Source of the DNA: Bacteroidaceae bacterium
GTDB lineage: Bacteria; Bacteroidota; Bacteroidia; Bacteroidales; Bacteroidaceae
Length of the DNA stretch: 38,497 nucleotides
Assembly (NCBI GenBank): GCA_017503065.1
Contig: JAFVTT010000035.1
Location: 1 to 38,497 of the forward strand
Direction of reading: 5' to 3'
Positions 17,622-38,183 of the stretch are shown one piece after another. The position numbers and the translations under genes were made by a program. The first letter of the stretch is position 1. Each line of letters starts with the position of its first letter. Below the pieces are notes generated by a model that did not search any database, was not told the origin of the DNA, and was given only the letters and a program-made list of their open reading frames with translations.

Positions 17622-18461
17622 ATGAAACATTATTTACCCAATTCCTTGCGTGCGCTGTTCCTGTCCCTGGCGGTGCTCCTGTCCCTGCCCATGCTGGCAG
17701 TAGAGGTTGAGATTGATGGGATAAACTATGACCTTAATGCAGAGGCAAAGCAGGCTACTGTAATAAAGAAGAGCAGTGGCAAGTATTCTGGTGAAGTTGT
17801 TATCCCAGAGTCTGTGGAGCACGAGGGCGCTGCATATAGAGTGACGAGCATAGGGGATGCTGCTTTCTTTAATTGGCCGGGTTTGACCTCGGTTACTATC
17901 CCCAATAGTGTGACGAGCATAGGGCATTCTGCTTTCGCTTATTGCTCTGGTTTGACCTCGGTTACTATCCCCAATAGTGTGACGAGCATAGGGAGGGGGG
18001 CTTTCGATTATTGCTTAGGTTTGAGCTCGGTTACTATCGGCAATAGTGTGACGAGCATAGGGCGTGAGGCTTTCCATGATTGCTCTGGTTTGATCTCGGT
18101 TACTATCGGAAGTGGTGTGGAGAGCATAGGGTGGAGTGCTTTCTCTGATTGCTCCAAACTCCTTGATGTTTATTGCTATGCCGAGAAGGTGCCTTCTACA
18201 GAGAGCACTGCATTTAATTATTCGCCAATAGTAAATGCCACCCTTCATGTTCCTGCTGCTTCCATTGATAGTTATAAGGCAACTGCACCTTGGAGAAGGT
18301 TTGGCAAGATTGTGGCCCTTACCGAAGAGGAGACAGGCATTGACGAACTGAAAGGTGAAAACGGAAAAGTGAAAACTGCCCTCTACGACCTCTCCGGCCG
18401 TCGTGTGCAGAAGGGGCAGAAGGGTGTCTTTATCCAGAACGGCAAGGTGATGGTTAGGTAA
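17622..18461 (+). CDS. Secreted BspA-like leucine-rich repeat protein (LRR_5 type)
   Basis: Exported protein of 279 residues. A signal peptide covers about residues 1-26 (hydrophobic core LRALFLSLAVLLSLPMLA). Residues about 72-190 contain five 23-residue BspA-type leucine-rich repeats with the core (V/I)TSIGxxAFxxCxGLxSVTI. Proteins of this type are surface or secreted binding proteins in Bacteroidales and oral bacteria. After a spacer, the C-terminus carries the tail TGIDELKGENGKVKTALYDL and onward; the 'DLSGRRV...GVFIQNGKVMV' part is shared with the glycosidase at 32292 and, more distantly, the peptidase at 4869, and the GENGKVKT part is encoded by a dispersed DNA heptamer repeat. It is short for its family, with few repeats. 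Ligand unknown. Confidence 0.88.
   Translation: MKHYLPNSLRALFLSLAVLLSLPMLAVEVEIDGINYDLNAEAKQATVIKKSSGKYSGEVVIPESVEHEGAAYRVTSIGDAAFFNWPGLTSVTIPNSVTSIGHSAFAYCSGLTSVTIPNSVTSIGRGAFDYCLGLSSVTIGNSVTSIGREAFHDCSGLISVTIGSGVESIGWSAFSDCSKLLDVYCYAEKVPSTESTAFNYSPIVNATLHVPAASIDSYKATAPWRRFGKIVALTEEETGIDELKGENGKVKTALYDLSGRRVQKGQKGVFIQNGKVMVR
17841..18185 (+). repeat. Five 69-bp tandem DNA repeats inside the LRR gene
   Basis: The motif GTGACGAGCATAGGG recurs exactly every 69 bp at 17841, 17910, 17979 and 18048, with a diverged copy at 18117. Each unit encodes one 23-residue LRR. DNA identity is highest between the second and third units, so repeat number can change by recombination. Confidence 0.9.
18354..18378 (+). 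repeat. Heptamer array (TGAAAAC, GGAAAAG, TGAAAAC) inside the LRR gene tail
   Basis: Three 7-bp units in frame encode GENGKVKT between the repeat domain and the conserved tail. Nearly the same 25 bp occurs at 36486-36510 in an unrelated gene at the equivalent place. Confidence 0.8.
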
Positions 18462-18730: not shown

Positions 18731-21700
18731 TCACCTCGTCTTCCTCAGGTAGTCGGCACGTTTGGTCATGTAGTCGGCCTGTGCCTGTGCGAGGCGGTTC
18801 TGGCTTTCACGCAGGAGGGTTTCGCTCTCCAGCAGGTCGGAGAGGATTTCCGTGCCCATGCGGTATTTGTCCAGAGACATGCGCATGTTCTCCGTTGCCT
18901 CCTCCACGCTGGTCATGGCTATGGCTATCTGCTTGTATGCCTCTACGAGGGAGGACCAGGAGGATTCGATGTCGATGATGAGTTGTTCGCGTGCATCCTG
19001 CAACTGGTTGTCGGCCTGCTGGAGGGCAAGTTTCTCGCGGCGTATGGCATGCGCTCCGCCCCACCATGCTGTGAGGGGCACGCTGACGGTGCCGAAGACC
19101 ATGCCGTTGTTCACCGTGTTGTCCATCATGGACTTGGTGCCTTCGGACAGTCCTCCGATGCCTGTGTGGCTGAGGGCAAGGCCTACGGCCACGGTGGGCA
19201 GACGCTTGCCCACCTCCATGCGCACCTTCAGTTTGCCGGCTTCCACACCCTTTTGTGCCATGGCCAGTTCCTGACGTGAGGCAAGGGCCTGCCGTGGCTC
19301 GATGTAGTAGGCGATGGGGTTCTCCGTTTCGGTGGGCAGGTGCAGGCTGACGTCCACCTCCTCTCCTGCCATGCCTATCTGCTGGGCCAGCAGGAGGCAC
19401 ATGACGTGGTGCGCATTGCTGAGGGTGAGGCTGTCCGAGGAGAGACGCTGCAGTTCCAGACGCACGCGGAGCAGGTCGTTGCGGGTGGTCACTCCGGCAT
19501 CCACATAGGTCTGCACCTCCTTGTAGATGGCGCGCAGTTGTGCCTGTGCGGCACCGACGGTGGCCTGGTTCAGTTTCAGTTTCACTATCTGGTAGTAGTT
19601 CTCCGTCACCTTCTGCAGGATGTCCTTGGTTTGCAGTTCCATCTGCAGTTCCGCCACATCCTGTCCTATGGCGGCCAGGCGGTTGCCGTTCACTATCTGC
19701 CCTCCGGCAAAGAGGGGCTGTGTCACCGTTCCCATCACGGCATAGGCCTGGTCCATCTCGCGTACGGAGAAGGGCTGCCCTGCCAGAGCCGCCAGTTGCG
19801 GGTTTATCTGCTCCAGTGCCGCCAGTTCCTGGGGGTAGTAACCGTCGGCCTTCACCATCTTGTCGAAGGCATGGAAGGCCATGACGTTGGCGGATATTTC
19901 GGGGAAGAACTTTGTGAAGGCTTCCTTTTTCTGTTCTCCAGCCTTCTGTATTTCCAGGGCGGCATTCTGCAGGGTGCGGTTGCGTGTGGCTGCATTTTGC
20001 AGGCATTCCTCAAGGGAGAGGGTACGAGGCTGAGCTTGCATGGCAAGGCAGCAGAAGAAAAGACCCACCCCCAAACCCCTCCCTCTATGGAGGGGAGTGG
20101 TAACAGCCGACTCGGAGTGCTCAGAATAGTCGGAGTTTTCAGAATAGTCGGAGTTTTCAGAATAGTCGGAGTTTTCTGAATTTCCGCTCATCGCTCCAGG
20201 CTCACGCGCAGTTTTCCGTTTTCCGTTTTCCGTTTTCCGTTTTGTCTCATACAGTTTCCAGTACACCACGGGCAGCACGGTGGTGACGAGCAGGAGCATG
20301 CCCACACCGCCGGCAAAGATGGTGATGCCCACGGGCATCCAGAAACTGCTGCCTGCAATGATCATGGGCACTACGCCCACGGCCGTGGTGGCCGTGGTCA
20401 GGAAGATGGGCACCATGCGGCGCTTGCCGGCATCGAAGGCGGCCTCCTTGGCCGACATGCCGGCGGCCATCTTCTCGTTGGCATGCTCGAAGATGAGTAT
20501 CTCGTTGCGCATGATCATGCCCATGAGGGTGATGAAGCCGAACAGGCTGGTGAGTCCCAGAATCTTGTTGGCAATGAGCAGGCCCACTATGGCGCCCGGC
20601 ATGCCCAGGCTGATGGCCACGATGCAGATGATGGCAATGGAGAACTTGCGGAAGTTGAACAGCAGGAAGAAGAAGATGAGCACCACGGCCATGCCCAGGC
20701 CTGCCATTATGTCGGGGGTGATGTCGTTGTTCTCCTCCGTCTCTCCTCCCACCTCGGCACGCACTCCCCGGGGCAGGGGCATTTGGCCGATGTAGTCGAT
20801 GATGCGGTTCTGTATGTTCAGGGCAAAGGTTCCGCGCTTGCCCTCGGCGGTTACGGAGATGCAACGCTCGCCGTTGCGGTGCACTATCTTGGTGTGCCCC
20901 CATCGGGGAGCCACGCCGGCCACCTGTCGCAGAGGCACGGAGGCCCCGGTGGGCGTACTCAGGTAGGTGTCGTCCACATCGCTGAAGGTCATCTGTTCGG
21001 TGGCACGGTCCTTGAGAACCAGAGGCACCTCGTAGGTACGGCTCTTGCCGTCCACGCTGCCTGCCTCCCAGATGGAACCAATCTGCATCTTGCCCGTCTG
21101 GAGCATGAGTTGCAGTTCGGCAGAGGTGCGCGATATGCCCAGTTGGCTGGAGGCTACGGGGTCCAGAGAGACTTCCACAAGGGGCGAGGGACGGTCATAG
21201 TCGGTATGCACCCATTCCAGTTCCGGAATGGTGCGCATCTCCTGCATGAGCATGTCGGCCGCCTGTTGTATGGAATCTATGTTGTTGCCATAGAAACGGT
21301 ACTCATAGGTGGGCACGGGCAGATAGTCCATCTGCTTCCAGCGCACGTAGGCGCCCGGCCAGTGGTTGCTGTACTTGGGAGCCAGTTTGTCCAGCAGTTC
21401 CAGCGAGGCCTCTATGCTCTCCGTGTTTACGATGAGTTGGGCGAAGTTCTTGCCCGCTATGACTGGAGCGTAGGACATGTGGAAGCGCGGTGAGGAACAG
21501 CCAATGAAACTGGTCACGCCCGTCACCTTCTCCTCCTTCTCGAGGATGCCGGTCAGTTCGTAGGTAATCTTCTTCGTCTCCTCCAGGCCGCTGCCCTCCG
21601 GCAGGTATATCTCCACGGCAAACTGGTTGCGGTCGGCATAGGGGAACTGGCGCATCTTCAGAAGCGGGAAGAGCACCCCGGTGGCCACCACCAGCACTAT

Positions 21701-23308
21701 GCTCCCGGCGATGGTGAGCCACGGATGGCGGAAGTTCCACGCCAGGGTCCTGTCGTACCAGTCCTGCACCCAGTCGGTGATGTCACGCTTGCCGGGAACC
21801 TTCTCCTTCACCTTGCGTATGATGGCCACGTTGAGCAAGGGTATGATGACCGCCGCCACCACCAGGGAAACCATCAGGTTGATGGTGATGGTCGGGGGGA
21901 AGATCCGTATGGCATCAGCGGCCTCGCCCTTCAGGGTGAGGAGTATGGGGAAGAAGATGGCGCAGATGCATACCGTGGCCAGAAGCATGGGCCAGAAATA
22001 CTGCTGCACGCTCTTTATGGCGGCCTCCATGCGGCTCATGCCGCCAGCCAGATACTCCAGATAGCCGTCTATGACCACGATGCTGTTGTCCACAATCATG
22101 CCCAGCACCACGATGAGGCATGCCAGGGTGATGATGTTCAGTTCTATGCCCATGGCATACATGATACCCGTGCTGACGAAGGTGGACAGCGGTATGGTGA
22201 GTGCTGCCACCATGGCACTCCTGATGGGGAAGAGCACTATCATTACGGCCACGATGATGACCATGGAGATGAGCAGGTCGCGCAGGAAGTCGCTCACGCT
22301 GGTTCCCACCACCTCGGGTTGGTCGGTGATGCGGCGCATCTGCACGTCCTCGGGCAGGCAGTCCTGGCGGAACTGGTCCAGTATCTCGTCCACATCCTCG
22401 CCGAACATGACTATGTTGTTGCCCTTCAGCATCTCCAGCGACAGGATGACGCAACGCTTGCCGTTGGACTCTATGTAGCCGTCGCTCAGGTCGTATTCCC
22501 TCAGCACCGAGGCAATGTCGCGCACACGCACCGTCTTGCCGTCGGGCGTGGTGAGGATGATGCGCTCGCTGATTTCCTGTTCGGAACTGATGGACGGAGC
22601 CACGTGTATGTTCAGGTTCTGTTGCGGTGTGGACAGGGTTCCGCTCATGGTGGTAAGTCCCTGACTTGTCAGAGCCTGGATGAGGGCCGACTGCCCTATG
22701 CCGTAAGCCGCCAGGCGCTCTCTGTCCACGCAGATGGTCAGTTGCTCCTTCTTCTCGCCCAGTTGCTGCACCTTGCTCACGCTGGGCAGACGGCGCAGGC
22801 GGTCGGCCAGTTCGTCGCTATAGCCCTGCAACTCGCGGTAGGAGCGCTGGTCGCTCTCCACGGTGATGAGCAGAGCGCTGGTGTCGCCGAAATCGTCCTG
22901 GACCACCAGGGCCACGACACCTTTGGGCAGTGAGGACTTGAAGTTGTTCAGTCCGTGCTTCATCTTGCTCCACACGGGGGTGAGGTTGTTCTGGTCGTCC
23001 TGGAACTCCACCATGACGATGCACATGCCGTTCTGGCTGGTAGAGTAGGTCTTGCTGCGGTTCACCTCCTTGTAGGTGAAGATATACCTTTCCAGTGGTC
23101 GTGCCACCTGTTCCTCTATCTCCTCGGCCGTGGCGCCCGGCATTACGGCAATGACCACGCCCTGACGGATGGTGAAGGCTGGGAACTCGTCCTTGGGCAT
23201 CACATACATGGCCCAGATGCCGAAGGCCAGAAACAAGGCCGTTATAAAGGCCGTAATCTTATAGTTTTGGATGGGCCACGCTATCCATGAGTTGGTTTTG
23301 AATGCCAT
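18731..23308 (-). CDS. Single open frame joining an RND efflux pump to a TolC-like outer-membrane factor
   Basis: Unbroken frame of 1525 residues. Residues 1-about 1020 are a full AcrB-family inner-membrane RND pump: MPGATAEEIEEQVARPLE near the N-terminus, VLGMIVDNSIVVID with Asp407-Asn408 at the AcrB Asp407-Asp408 position, and LMGMIMRNEILIFEHA with Arg934 where AcrB has Lys940. Residues about 1090-1525 are a TolC-like outer-membrane factor (RTLSLEECLQNAATRNRTL, then TQPLFAGGQIVNGNRLAAIG, and a second similar repeat half). The linker, about 1021-1090, is translated repeat DNA: KRKTENGKRKT heptamer peptide, SENSDY nonamer peptide, then TPLHRGRGLGVG from a dispersed element, running into LFFCCLAMQAQ, the remains of a signal peptide. 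An in-frame ATG (20191, residue 1040) could start the outer-membrane factor separately. RND and outer-membrane factor are normally separate genes. The adaptor lies upstream, 117 nt away. Confidence 0.85.
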   Translation of the reverse strand: MAFKTNSWIAWPIQNYKITAFITALFLAFGIWAMYVMPKDEFPAFTIRQGVVIAVMPGATAEEIEEQVARPLERYIFTYKEVNRSKTYSTSQNGMCIVMVEFQDDQNNLTPVWSKMKHGLNNFKSSLPKGVVALVVQDDFGDTSALLITVESDQRSYRELQGYSDELADRLRRLPSVSKVQQLGEKKEQLTICVDRERLAAYGIGQSALIQALTSQGLTTMSGTLSTPQQNLNIHVAPSISSEQEISERIILTTPDGKTVRVRDIASVLREYDLSDGYIESNGKRCVILSLEMLKGNNIVMFGEDVDEILDQFRQDCLPEDVQMRRITDQPEVVGTSVSDFLRDLLISMVIIVAVMIVLFPIRSAMVAALTIPLSTFVSTGIMYAMGIELNIITLACLIVVLGMIVDNSIVVIDGYLEYLAGGMSRMEAAIKSVQQYFWPMLLATVCICAIFFPILLTLKGEAADAIRIFPPTITINLMVSLVVAAVIIPLLNVAIIRKVKEKVPGKRDITDWVQDWYDRTLAWNFRHPWLTIAGSIVLVVATGVLFPLLKMRQFPYADRNQFAVEIYLPEGSGLEETKKITYELTGILEKEEKVTGVTSFIGCSSPRFHMSYAPVIAGKNFAQLIVNTESIEASLELLDKLAPKYSNHWPGAYVRWKQMDYLPVPTYEYRFYGNNIDSIQQAADMLMQEMRTIPELEWVHTDYDRPSPLVEVSLDPVASSQLGISRTSAELQLMLQTGKMQIGSIWEAGSVDGKSRTYEVPLVLKDRATEQMTFSDVDDTYLSTPTGASVPLRQVAGVAPRWGHTKIVHRNGERCISVTAEGKRGTFALNIQNRIIDYIGQMPLPRGVRAEVGGETEENNDITPDIMAGLGMAVVLIFFFLLFNFRKFSIAIICIVAISLGMPGAIVGLLIANKILGLTSLFGFITLMGMIMRNEILIFEHANEKMAAGMSAKEAAFDAGKRRMVPIFLTTATTAVGVVPMIIAGSSFWMPVGITIFAGGVGMLLLVTTVLPVVYWKLYETKRKTENGKRKTAREPGAMSGNSENSDYSENSDYSENSDYSEHSESAVTTPLHRGRGLGVGLFFCCLAMQAQPRTLSLEECLQNAATRNRTLQNAALEIQKAGEQKKEAFTKFFPEISANVMAFHAFDKMVKADGYYPQELAALEQINPQLAALAGQPFSVREMDQAYAVMGTVTQPLFAGGQIVNGNRLAAIGQDVAELQMELQTKDILQKVTENYYQIVKLKLNQATVGAAQAQLRAIYKEVQTYVDAGVTTRNDLLRVRLELQRLSSDSLTLSNAHHVMCLLLAQQIGMAGEEVDVSLHLPTETENPIAYYIEPRQALASRQELAMAQKGVEAGKLKVRMEVGKRLPTVAVGLALSHTGIGGLSEGTKSMMDNTVNNGMVFGTVSVPLTAWWGGAHAIRREKLALQQADNQLQDAREQLIIDIESSWSSLVEAYKQIAIAMTSVEEATENMRMSLDKYRMGTEILSDLLESETLLRESQNRLAQAQADYMTKRADYLRKTR
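20062..20098 (-). repeat. 36-37 bp G-rich dispersed element, copy in the RND/OMF linker
   Basis: On the minus strand it runs ACTCCCCTCCATAGAGGGAG then G-rich to GGGTGGGTC, nearly identical to 36901-36936. It contains the hairpin CCCCTCCATAGAGGGAGGGG and encodes TPLHRGRGLGVG just before the hydrophobic stretch of the outer-membrane factor. Its 3' edge lies 21 nt from the first Met codon of the factor's old signal region. Confidence 0.85.
20112..20193. repeat. Nonamer array TCNGANNNN (eight units) plus CCGCTCATCG joint
   Basis: Units start at 20112, 20121, 20130, 20139, 20148, 20157, 20166 and 20175; TCGGAGTTT and TCAGAATAG alternate as an 18-bp higher-order unit. They are followed by CCGCTCATCG (20184-20193). 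Translated on the minus strand it gives the SENSDY repeat of the fusion linker. Confidence 0.9.
20211..20243 (-). repeat. Heptamer array (GGAAAAC)4 at the end of the RND domain
   Basis: Four perfect 7-bp units plus a partial, A-rich on the coding (minus) strand, directly after the last membrane helix of the pump. Encodes KRKTENGKRKT. Confidence 0.9.
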
Positions 23309-23321
23309 GATAGTATAAATT

Positions 23322-23466
23322 TGAAAACGGAAAGGGGAAAACGGAAAACTGAAAGTTTTTCCTTTGCTCGGAGGAGTCAGAGAACTCGGATTATTCGGAA
23401 AACTCGGACTTTCCCGAGAAACCGCTCACCGCAGTTTTCCGTTTTCCGTTTTCCGTTTTCCGTTTG
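23322..23466. repeat. Composite repeat: heptamers, nonamers, joint, inverted heptamers
   Basis: Between the adaptor and pump genes. A-rich heptamers at 23322-23350 (plus strand), five TCNGANNNN nonamers from 23368 with a sixth decayed unit to 23421, the joint CCGCTCACCG at 23422-23431, then four GTTTTCC heptamers at 23434-23461. The 16 bp at 23336-23351 are the exact reverse complement of 23432-23447, so the nonamers sit in the loop of a possible hairpin. The adaptor's stop codon (23426-23428) is inside the joint. Confidence 0.9.
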
Positions 23467-24481
23467 TCACCCTCGTCCCTTCGCTCACCTTCTGGTATCC
23501 CTCCACGATAACCTTGTCTCCTTCGGACAGGCCGGAGAGTATCTGTATGCGGTCGCCAACGGTCTCTCCCACGGACACGTTGCTTCTGTGGGCCTTGCCG
23601 TCTGCCATGGTCCATACGAAGAGGTTGCCGCCAGCTGATTGTTGTACGGCACGTATGGGCAGGTACATGCCCTGCTGTCCTGTCTGGCCGGACAATGCCA
23701 CCTTGGCTACCATGCCGGGCAGGATGTCGCCATCGGGGTTGTCTATGTTTATGCGTATGTCGTAGGTATGAGTGGCTGCATCGGCAACTACCCCTTTCTC
23801 AATAGCGCCACCGCTGACCTGCTTGCCGTTCAGCGCCTCTATGGTAAGGCTGGAGGGCGTGGAGGGCGATATGACGGCAATCTCCCTCTCGGGGATGCTG
23901 ACCTTGACCTTCAGTTTGCGGATGCTCAGTATGCTCACCACAGGCTGGGAGGGCAGGGCGGTCTCGCCGGTACTGAGGGACTTCTTGCCCACCACGCCGT
24001 CGATGGGAGCATGGATGCTGCAGTCCTCCAGCATCTTCCTGGCGGCAGAGAGCGAAGCCTCGGCCTGTTTCACCTTGCTCTGCACCTCCACCCATTTCAT
24101 GTCGGCCAGCGACTTGTTCTCATGCAGTTTTCTCATGCGCTCCAGGGCATCGGTGGCCTGCTTGTGAGTGGCCTGTGCCATGGCCAGGGCGTTCTCCGCC
24201 TGGGTTTTGTCCATCTCGGCCAGCAGTTGGCCCTTGCGCACGGCTTGTCCCTCGCTCACATGCACCTGCCTGATCATGCCCATGCCGGTGAAACTGACTG
24301 CCACTGACGTACCTTCTTCCACTACACCCACATAGGATGCCGGAGCGGCATCGCTGCTGAGGCATACGGTTTCCGTGGTCACTTTCAGAACGTCGGTGTT
24401 CTGCTTCTTCTCCTTGCCAGAGCATGCCATCATGCACAATGCCGCCAGCACGGTGCACAGGATATATGCATTCTTCTTCAT
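23426..24481 (-). CDS. HlyD/AcrA-type periplasmic adaptor lipoprotein of the RND efflux system
   Basis: Membrane-fusion protein of 351 residues linking the RND pump to the outer-membrane factor. It has a lipoprotein signal (LAALCMMAC, lipid-modified Cys20), a barrel-sandwich half-motif MIRQVHVSEGQAVRKGQLLAEMD, an alpha-hairpin of about 60 residues (AENALAMAQATHKQ onward), the second half IHAPIDGVVGKKSLSTGE, and a beta-barrel region ending in VGETVGDRIQILSGLSEGDK. The last residues (NGKRKTENGKLR) are translated heptamer repeat and follow the normal end VIVEGYQKV. Start: 24481 is chosen because the promoter TATCTTTG at 24519-24526 puts the transcript start next to the longer candidate at 24517. 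It is the first gene of the efflux operon. Confidence 0.9.
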   Translation of the reverse strand: MKKNAYILCTVLAALCMMACSGKEKKQNTDVLKVTTETVCLSSDAAPASYVGVVEEGTSVAVSFTGMGMIRQVHVSEGQAVRKGQLLAEMDKTQAENALAMAQATHKQATDALERMRKLHENKSLADMKWVEVQSKVKQAEASLSAARKMLEDCSIHAPIDGVVGKKSLSTGETALPSQPVVSILSIRKLKVKVSIPEREIAVISPSTPSSLTIEALNGKQVSGGAIEKGVVADAATHTYDIRINIDNPDGDILPGMVAKVALSGQTGQQGMYLPIRAVQQSAGGNLFVWTMADGKAHRSNVSVGETVGDRIQILSGLSEGDKVIVEGYQKVSEGTRVTNGKRKTENGKLR

Positions 24482-24518
24482 GATTGGTTTTATGTTGCTT
24501 TTGTTCTTTTTCGGCATA

Positions 24519-28310: not shown

Positions 28311-28321
28311 AAAGAAAGAGG

Positions 28322-28376
28322 GACCCACCCCCGGCCCTTCCCTGTATGGAGGGGTTAGGGGGTGGGTCTCCTTTTA
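28322..28376. terminator. Dispersed G/C-rich element acting as a bidirectional terminator
   Basis: 28322-28368 begins GACCCACCCCC and ends GGGGGTGGGTC, an 11-bp perfect outer inverted repeat with a further CCCTTCCC/GGAGGGG pairing inside. It occupies nearly all of the 63-nt gap between two convergent genes and is followed by TCTCCTTTT. It is the palindromic version of the element at 20062, 26061 and 36901. Confidence 0.75.
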
Positions 28377-36900: not shown

Positions 36901-36936
36901 ACTCCCCTCCATAGAGGGAGGGGATGGGGGTGGGTC
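36901..36936 (+). repeat. G-rich dispersed element upstream of mrp
   Basis: Nearly identical to the copy at 20062-20098 (read on the minus strand) and in the same orientation to the next start codon, which lies 17 nt away at 36954. Contains the hairpin CCCCTCCATAGAGGGAGGGG. Confidence 0.85.
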
Positions 36937-36953
36937 CTAAATAATAATATAAT

Positions 36954-38104: not shown

Positions 38105-38183
38105 GTAGGGACGCTGCGTGCAGCGTCCGCATTATATCAACCTGGTGTTTTGCGGACGCTGCACGCAGCGTCCCTACTTTTTT
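38105..38183. terminator. Perfect 27-bp inverted repeat between convergent genes (terminator-like, dispersed GTAGGGAC family)
   Basis: 38105-38131 is the exact reverse complement of 38151-38177, with a 19-nt spacer. Each arm begins or ends in GTAGGGACGC and is itself nearly palindromic (GGACGCTGC/GCAGCGTCC), so cruciforms or single-arm hairpins are possible. It is followed by TTTTTT. It lies between mrp and nhaC, which converge. Confidence 0.85.

What the first reader, a model, noticed from the sequence alone, without database searches (positions are those of the whole stretch)
18731..23308. RND pump and TolC-like outer-membrane factor fused into one 1525-codon frame through repeat DNA
The frame is unbroken from an AcrB-type pump into an outer-membrane factor, normally two genes. 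The linker (about residues 1021-1090) is not protein-like: it translates a heptamer array, the CGATGAGCGG joint, a nonamer array and a 36-bp dispersed element in that order, then enters what looks like the damaged signal peptide of the factor (LFFCCLAMQAQ). The dispersed element even supplies basic residues (PLHRGRG) just before the hydrophobic core. Either the product is a polyprotein cut by signal peptidase at AQA/Q, or the factor starts at the internal ATG at 20191 with a repeat-encoded n-region. Both would be unusual ways to build an efflux system.
Basis: partly seen in the sequence, partly recalled or inferred. Interest (0 to 1): 0.78.

Follow-up and report, generated by a model that had tools for sequence, protein, structure and literature searches.

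The report
Efflux pump fused to its exit channel
Two parts of a bacterial drug-type efflux machine, one for the inner and one for the outer membrane, are encoded here as one long protein that is probably cut in two by the cell's ordinary signal-cleaving enzyme, and the join between them is built from wandering repeat DNA that differs greatly between relatives while the reading frame stays open.

Summary
One unbroken 1525-codon minus-strand frame (18731-23308) joins a complete AcrB-type RND pump to a complete TolC-fold outer-membrane factor (OMF) through a 73-residue linker of heptamer array, 18-bp array and dispersed element. It is not an assembly accident. An independent roe-deer MAG holds the same fusion (about 99% identical), and 52 listed protein clusters of the same clade are fused. 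In the genus, 90 of 98 loci counted are two adjacent genes and 8 are fused; the state changed repeatedly. In the window's clade, 56 fused rows carry 31 different linkers of 17 lengths, in 11 combinations of 5 left and 5 right repeat modules, all in frame. Forty-one of the 56 rows have no Met before the hydrophobic core; two loci of another fused group have no ATG, GTG or TTG there. So the OMF generally depends on read-through; the window itself keeps an ATG. Best reading: a polyprotein whose retained OMF signal peptide follows TM12 and is cut by signal peptidase I, giving pump and channel 1:1. Cleavage is inferred. Similar fusions recur in distant lineages. The repeats also lie in frame in uvrA and an mfd-like gene.

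The parts
23426..24517 (-). Periplasmic adaptor (MFP) gene, upstream in the same direction; its C-terminal tail (..TNGKRKTENGKLR) is translated heptamer repeat
   Evidence: TIGR01730 E 2e-66; 36-bp stretch 23430-23465 identical to 20207-20242 (D4)
20255..23308 (-). RND pump half, residues 1-1018 of the fused frame
   Evidence: ACR_tran 18-1018; nearest solved chains MexK 9xwg and 6vej by sequence
20033..20251 (-). Linker, residues 1020-1092, made of repeat DNA and ending in the signal-peptide-like core
   Evidence: 219 nt; pLDDT about 30
20211..20243 (-). Heptamer array (AAAACGG)n, read KRKTENGKRK
   Evidence: TRF period 7, 4.7 copies, 100%
20184..20193 (-). CGATGAGCGG joint with the internal in-frame ATG at 20191
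20112..20181 (-). 18-bp tandem array, read ENSDYS
   Evidence: TRF period 18, 3.9 copies, 94%
20061..20098 (-). Dispersed GC-rich element, read PLHRGRGLGVG; other copies in the window at 28321-28369 and 36901-36937
   Evidence: I2, I3, I5
20039..20074 (-). Hydrophobic core LGVGLFFCCLAM: predicted internal signal peptide / TM13
   Evidence: KD12 2.42 against 2.44 +/- 0.35 for 88 split OMF signal peptides
18731..20032 (-). OMF (TolC-like), residues 1093-1525 plus stop; predicted mature channel
   Evidence: OEP; AlphaFold model matches TolC 1ek9 at TMt 0.80; dN/dS 0.09-0.21 against L140, L141 and L144

Best explanation
The adaptor gene is followed by one gene for a pump-OMF polyprotein. Ribosomes read from the pump (12 TM helices, C-terminus in the cytoplasm, by the known AcrB topology, recalled) straight through a 73-residue disordered cytoplasmic linker into the OMF's retained signal peptide. 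That hydrophobic segment is exported N-in/C-out, and signal peptidase I cuts after it (..LAMQA/QPRT.. or three residues earlier). This frees a mature TolC-type channel for the outer membrane and leaves the pump with a C-terminal tail. The result is a standard RND-MFP-OMF tripartite pump made with pump and channel at 1:1, the ratio of the 3:3 assembly (recalled). The linker is a tolerant stretch in which dispersed repeat cassettes, which also sit at other gene junctions here, land and are swapped. Frame-breaking swaps are lost because the OMF mostly has no good start of its own. Shown here: the frame, its conservation, the linker turnover, purifying selection on both halves, missing starts in relatives, and the TolC fold. 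Inferred: cleavage, topology, stoichiometry, and selection as the cause of frame keeping.
For: Fused orthologs: L001/L140 99%, L011/L141 98%, L012/L144 81%, L154, and 52 listed protein clusters. In the window's clade: 56 fused rows, 31 distinct linkers, 17 lengths (57-84 aa), and 11 combinations of 5 left and 5 right repeat modules, all in frame (correcting, where one row was mis-sorted). Fewest changes on the pump tree: 15 (left), 12 (right), 17 (combined), 22 (length). The window and P0010 have nearly identical pumps and 97.5% identical OMFs but wholly different linkers. The 3 split rows of the 59-row clade show no translated repeat tail (DNA seen only for L043). No ATG/GTG/TTG before the core in L057 and L067. 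Core hydropathy is like that of ordinary OMF signal peptides. OMF dN/dS 0.09-0.21. TolC fold, first strand and helix 5 and 9 residues after the core. The 22 distant fusions show the same layout by eye: a signal-peptide-like segment soon after the pump end.
Against: No protein-level data. The window, L040 and L041 keep an in-frame ATG. In 42 of 56 rows, the window included, the end is MQA/Q with Met at -3, a poor fit to the signal-peptidase rule; 14 of 56 end AQA/Q, a good fit; in the window C-L-A/M three residues earlier fits better. The split state works in 90 of 98 loci counted, so fusion is not needed. The adaptor-pump junction, which is not fused, gives no contrast: in the four fused loci with DNA its length is also a multiple of three (156, 156, 156, 195). 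Recombination among alleles already in frame would keep the frame for free, so only about 8 first appearances of modules are strict tests (about (1/3)^8 if frame did not matter; rough).
Confidence: 0.72

Rival explanations
1. Internal initiation: the OMF is translated separately from the ATG at 20191 (MSGNSENSDYS...LFFCCLAMQA), with a repeat-encoded n-region, and the open frame between pump and OMF is incidental.
For: The ATG exists in WIN, L040 and L041; L042 and L068 have GTG and L063 TTG before the core.
Against: 17 of 31 distinct linkers (41 of 56 rows) lack Met before the core; L057 and L067 lack any common start there; the n-region from 20191 would be 39 residues, rich in Asp and Glu; the frame would not need to stay open through 11 module combinations.
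Confidence: 0.13
2. Uncleaved single chain: the core stays as TM13 and tethers the channel to the inner membrane in the working pump.
For: The frame is continuous, no cleavage is shown, and 42 of 56 rows have Met at -3 of the likeliest cut site.
Against: The first OMF strand and helix begin 5 and 9 residues after the core, while in TolC the N-terminus lies in the mid-periplasmic equatorial region (recalled), far from the inner membrane. All 56 rows keep a QAQ end.
Confidence: 0.1
3. Artefact or decaying locus: a collapsed repeat or a pseudogene joined the frames.
For: Repeats of this kind (92 pattern matches in G001, overlapping ones counted apart) are hard for short-read assembly.
Against: Same fusion in independent MAGs of roe deer, water deer, yak and water buffalo hindgut and in 52 listed clusters; dN/dS 0.05-0.21 over the two halves; no stops.
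Confidence: 0.03

Closest known systems
AcrAB-TolC / MexJK / TriABC type RND tripartite pumps
   Same: Same three parts; the pump is nearest by sequence to MexK (9xwg) and 6vej among solved chains, and the OMF has the TolC fold
   Different: Pump and OMF are one frame here; in the named systems they are separate genes (recalled)
RND-OMF fusion proteins in databases (JGI product name 'multidrug efflux pump subunit AcrB/outer membrane protein TolC')
   Same: Same order of domains and a signal-peptide-like segment between them
   Different: 25-40% identical in the OMF; by eye most of the 22 show no repeat module, though P0121 has a short SPLPSRKG stretch that may be one
Bradyrhizobium fbcH cytochrome b/c1 polyprotein, cut by signal peptidase (recalled; only the title of Thony-Meyer 1989 was seen, in a reference list)
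   Same: Polytopic membrane protein followed in frame by an exported partner with an internal signal peptide (recalled)
   Different: Not an efflux pump; the partner stays in the inner membrane; no repeat-built linker known to me (recalled)
Rickettsia palindromic elements (passages of PMC10969869)
   Same: Dispersed palindromic repeats read in frame inside protein genes
   Different: Another phylum; here several repeat families replace one another at one junction; no sequence comparison with them was made

Membership tests
RND (HAE-type) efflux permease | Full ACR_tran domain | tested here: met
   residues 18-1018, 509.5 bits, cut-off 28
RND (HAE-type) efflux permease | Named NCBI subfamily above its curated cut-off | tested here: not met
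   best RND_permease_2 437.5 bits against cut-off 1250; so no named subfamily is assigned
TolC-type outer-membrane factor | Two OEP repeats and TolC fold | tested here: met
   OEP with 2 stretches; TMt 0.80 to 1ek9
Tripartite RND operon | Adaptor gene next to the pump | tested here: met
   RND_mfp TIGR01730 at 23426-24517, 117 nt before the pump
Tripartite RND operon | Transport activity | not testable with these tools
   needs experiment
Signal-peptidase-cut polyprotein | Internal signal peptide with usable cut site | tested here: inconclusive
   hydrophobic core met; cut site fits well in 14 of 56 rows and poorly at -3 in 42, window included; cleavage not shown
Signal-peptidase-cut polyprotein | Second partner lacks its own start | tested here: inconclusive
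   no Met in 41 of 56 rows; no common start in L057 and L067; but WIN, L040 and L041 keep an ATG, and L042, L063 and L068 have GTG or TTG
Palindromic elements translated in frame (as in Rickettsia) | Dispersed repeats inside several unrelated genes, in frame | tested here: met
   uvrA and an mfd-like gene of G001 plus this linker; mobility of the repeats was not tested

The most novel reading that the evidence does not exclude
A true inner-membrane/outer-membrane polyprotein: pump and exit channel are made as one chain and separated by signal peptidase. Its junction is a hot spot where several families of translated dispersed repeats replace one another by recombination while the frame is kept by selection, as part of a wider habit in this genus of translating repeat DNA inside protein genes.
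Probability: 0.5. Interest if true: 0.75.

Novelty: new variant of a known kind. Interest (0 to 1): 0.62.

Why it matters
If cleaved as predicted, one translation event delivers an inner-membrane pump and its outer-membrane channel in equal numbers, a simple answer to how the stoichiometry of a two-membrane machine is set. The repeated gain or loss of the fusion and the turnover of the linker give a natural experiment on what a polyprotein junction needs. It also points to a second bacterial phylum in which dispersed repeats are read as protein.

Tried and rejected
Assembly collapse, pseudogene and chance open frame were rejected. Use of the 'open_frame_aa' column of the genome search as a sign of fusion was rejected, because it reads through stops (G038 is listed at 1502 but is split). 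The adaptor-pump junction was tried as a control and failed as one: it is unfused, yet in the four fused loci with DNA its lengths are also multiples of three. A first module sorting left one row unassigned, a one-residue variant of the main type, and gave 12 combinations; the corrected count is 11. An apparent early stop in the L141 adaptor was an artefact of where the match began; the gene reads through intact. A codon-level test on the linker itself was not done: too few DNA sequences, and alignment between modules is uncertain. Literature: six searches for natural RND-OMF fusions; four returned no paper, and two returned listings (5 and 4 papers) in which I saw no such fusion in titles or abstract starts. 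I looked at passages of three of these: PMC8277102 (first 300,000 of 747,799 characters held), PMC2891726 and PMC13328181; none describes one. Most subscription journals are not in the library. Searches for fbcH and for bacterial polyproteins with internal signal peptides gave no usable text. Rows dropped: of 112 genus genomes with a match at E 1e-100 out of 139 searched, one locus was fetched from each of 100; 12 with only partial or paralogous matches were not, though G042 came in later as L154. Of the 100, three (L073, L086, L088) had no OMF match in the fetched stretch. So 98 loci are counted, L154 included and the window not. The fetched and listed rows may include some species twice (a locus and a protein cluster).

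Full report
What is in the window. The frame at 18731-23308 on the minus strand is 1525 codons, ATG to stop, without a break. Residues 18-1018 are a full ACR_tran domain, and the C-terminal part holds two OEP stretches. A periplasmic adaptor gene lies upstream at 23426-24517, so adaptor, pump and channel are in operon order. The linker (residues 1020-1092, nt 20033-20251) translates a heptamer array (20211-20243), the CGATGAGCGG joint with an in-frame ATG at 20191, an 18-bp array (20112-20181) and a dispersed element (about 20061-20098). It then runs into a hydrophobic core and the start of the OMF.

It is real and conserved. The window's own assembly is not held. The nearest genome G001 (MAG RGIG4159, roe deer colon) has the fused frame at 99%. 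Water deer (98%) and yak (81%) MAGs have it, and so does a water buffalo MAG whose contig starts inside the pump (L154). A protein search, with the best 120 of 7966 hits listed, shows 52 fused clusters of the same clade and four more at 60-62% identity. Both halves are under purifying selection: dN/dS against L140, L141 and L144 is 0.05, 0.06 and 0.19 for the pump and 0.10, 0.09 and 0.21 for the OMF. An AlphaFold model of linker plus OMF gives a disordered linker (pLDDT about 30) and a TolC-type fold (mean pLDDT 73; TMt 0.80 to 1ek9).

The genus is mixed. Of 139 genomes of the genus, 112 gave a match at E 1e-100. From 100 of these I fetched one locus each. In 97 an OMF match follows the pump: 90 are split, and 7 are fused. 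In the split junctions printed (14 of 90) the pump's stop comes before an OMF with an ordinary Met-Lys or similar signal peptide. L154 (G042) is an eighth fused locus, so 8 of 98. On a FastTree tree of 218 pumps (64 fused) the fused state needs 8 changes, at least 6 forced by well supported branches. Four of the eight fused genomes (G029, G119, G132, G134) lie in a second group of 17 rows, 8 fused and 9 split. Within the window's clade of 59 rows, 56 are fused and 3 split. One split member, L043, has a pump 97% identical to the fused P0038, but its OMF is at most about 68% identical to any other OMF compared. This suggests that the split state returned by replacement of the downstream gene.

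The linker turns over, the frame does not. The 56 fused rows of the clade (52 protein clusters, the window and three loci; some may stand for the same species) carry 31 distinct linkers of 17 lengths, 57-84 residues. Sorted by motif, they hold 5 left and 5 right repeat modules in 11 combinations (one search gave 12 because one row was mis-sorted). On the pump tree the fewest changes are 15 for the left part, 12 for the right part, 17 combined and 22 for length. The pumps of the window and P0010 are nearly identical and their OMFs 97.5% identical, yet the linkers differ entirely. No frame-shifted repeat linker was seen among the listed proteins: the three split rows end in LYEK or in an unrelated tail, but their DNA was seen only for L043. 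Recombination between alleles already in frame would keep the frame for free, so only the first appearance of each module (about 8 events) is a strict test. If frame did not matter, the chance of all eight being in frame would be about (1/3)^8. The adaptor-pump junction, tried as a control, gives no contrast: unfused, its length is still a multiple of three in the four fused loci with DNA (156, 156, 156, 195). The argument for selection is therefore suggestive, not tight.

How the OMF gets out. In all 31 linkers the segment before the OMF is about as hydrophobic as the signal peptides of split OMFs (88 of 90 could be scored; mean KD12 2.44, sd 0.35; linkers 2.28-3.06). All 56 rows end in QAQ; 14 end in AQAQ, a good signal-peptidase site, and 42, the window among them, in MQAQ, with Met at -3. 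For the latter a cut three residues earlier (C-L-A/M in the window) fits better. Forty-one of 56 rows have no Met before the core. L057 and L067 have no ATG, GTG or TTG there; the window, L040 and L041 keep an ATG, and L042, L063 and L068 have GTG or TTG. So for the window alone internal initiation stays open. The first OMF strand and helix begin 5 and 9 residues after the core, while in TolC the N-terminus sits mid-periplasm (recalled), so an uncut product could hardly form a normal channel. I therefore favour a polyprotein cut by signal peptidase I. Cleavage, topology and 1:1 output are inferences.

It recurs. A search with residues 1085-1525 alone, open only to proteins of comparable total length, lists 78 proteins, all with both ACR_tran and OEP: 56 of the two groups above and 22 more distant ones, among them records named Breznakibacter and Thermoanaerobaculales, and two that JGI names AcrB/TolC (only the 7993 candidates sharing most words were scored). 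By eye, 16 of these 22 have no Met before the hydrophobic segment, though several have one inside it. So the architecture is not unique; the repeat-built, fast-changing linker is what sets this clade apart. The linkers of L057 and L067 also hold a short CCTCCCCGAGGGGAGGGG palindrome, so repeat DNA may have entered the second group too.

The repeats. The heptamer pattern matches 92 times in G001 (overlapping matches counted apart) against 0 for the reversed control. Of 30 fetched matches, read by a crude frame test that also marks doubtful frames, I looked closely at those in long frames. One lies in frame in uvrA (TIGR00630, 925 bits over a cut-off of 730) and one in an mfd-like gene (TIGR00580, 309 bits, below the cut-off of 800; the locus is cut). 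In uvrA, heptamer plus a GC-rich element lengthen a variable loop to 70 residues, against 47-61 in the 15 of 29 other loci that my pattern could read. The mfd case was not compared with relatives. The adaptor's tail is also translated heptamer. This resembles the Rickettsia palindromic elements as described in passages of PMC10969869.

Known or new. The components are textbook. A polytopic membrane protein followed by an internally signalled partner has a precedent in fbcH (recalled). Six searches of the held library for natural RND-OMF fusions found none described (passages of three papers). I call it a new variant of a known kind.

Noticed in passing
L172, minus strand (G001 uvrA); L174, minus strand (G001 mfd-like): Heptamer repeat read in frame inside uvrA (with a GC-rich element, KIKTENGKGRTLPLTPPQGRG) and inside an mfd-like gene (LKRKTENG); in uvrA the loop is 70 residues against 47-61 in 15 relatives read.
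   Followed up: partly
window 23309-23465: The adaptor-pump junction is itself a compound inverted repeat (heptamer, 9-bp units, inverse heptamer) and forms the adaptor's C-terminal tail; 36 bp of it are identical to the linker's heptamer stretch.
   Followed up: partly
L144 (G049) adaptor-pump junction: The other repeat family (GACCC..CCCTCC element) sits there as an inverted pair, so two repeat families seem to replace each other at more than one junction.
   Followed up: no
L043/L142 (G038): Pump 97% identical to a fused relative but OMF at most about 68% identical to any compared: downstream gene probably replaced, giving back the split state.
   Followed up: partly
P0037: Its OMF is 98-99% like the window's subclade while its pump falls in the other subclade: recombination at the linker or a chimeric assembly.
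   Followed up: no
L057 and L067 linkers: A CCTCCCCGAGGGGAGGGG palindrome in both linkers of the second fused group, although their pumps are not sisters on the tree.
   Followed up: no
window 17836-18180: Tandem 69-bp repeats (about 4.6 copies) in an ORF of 279 aa with leucine-rich-repeat-like translation.
   Followed up: no
window 38105-38177: Perfect 27-bp inverted repeat with a 19-bp loop.
   Followed up: no
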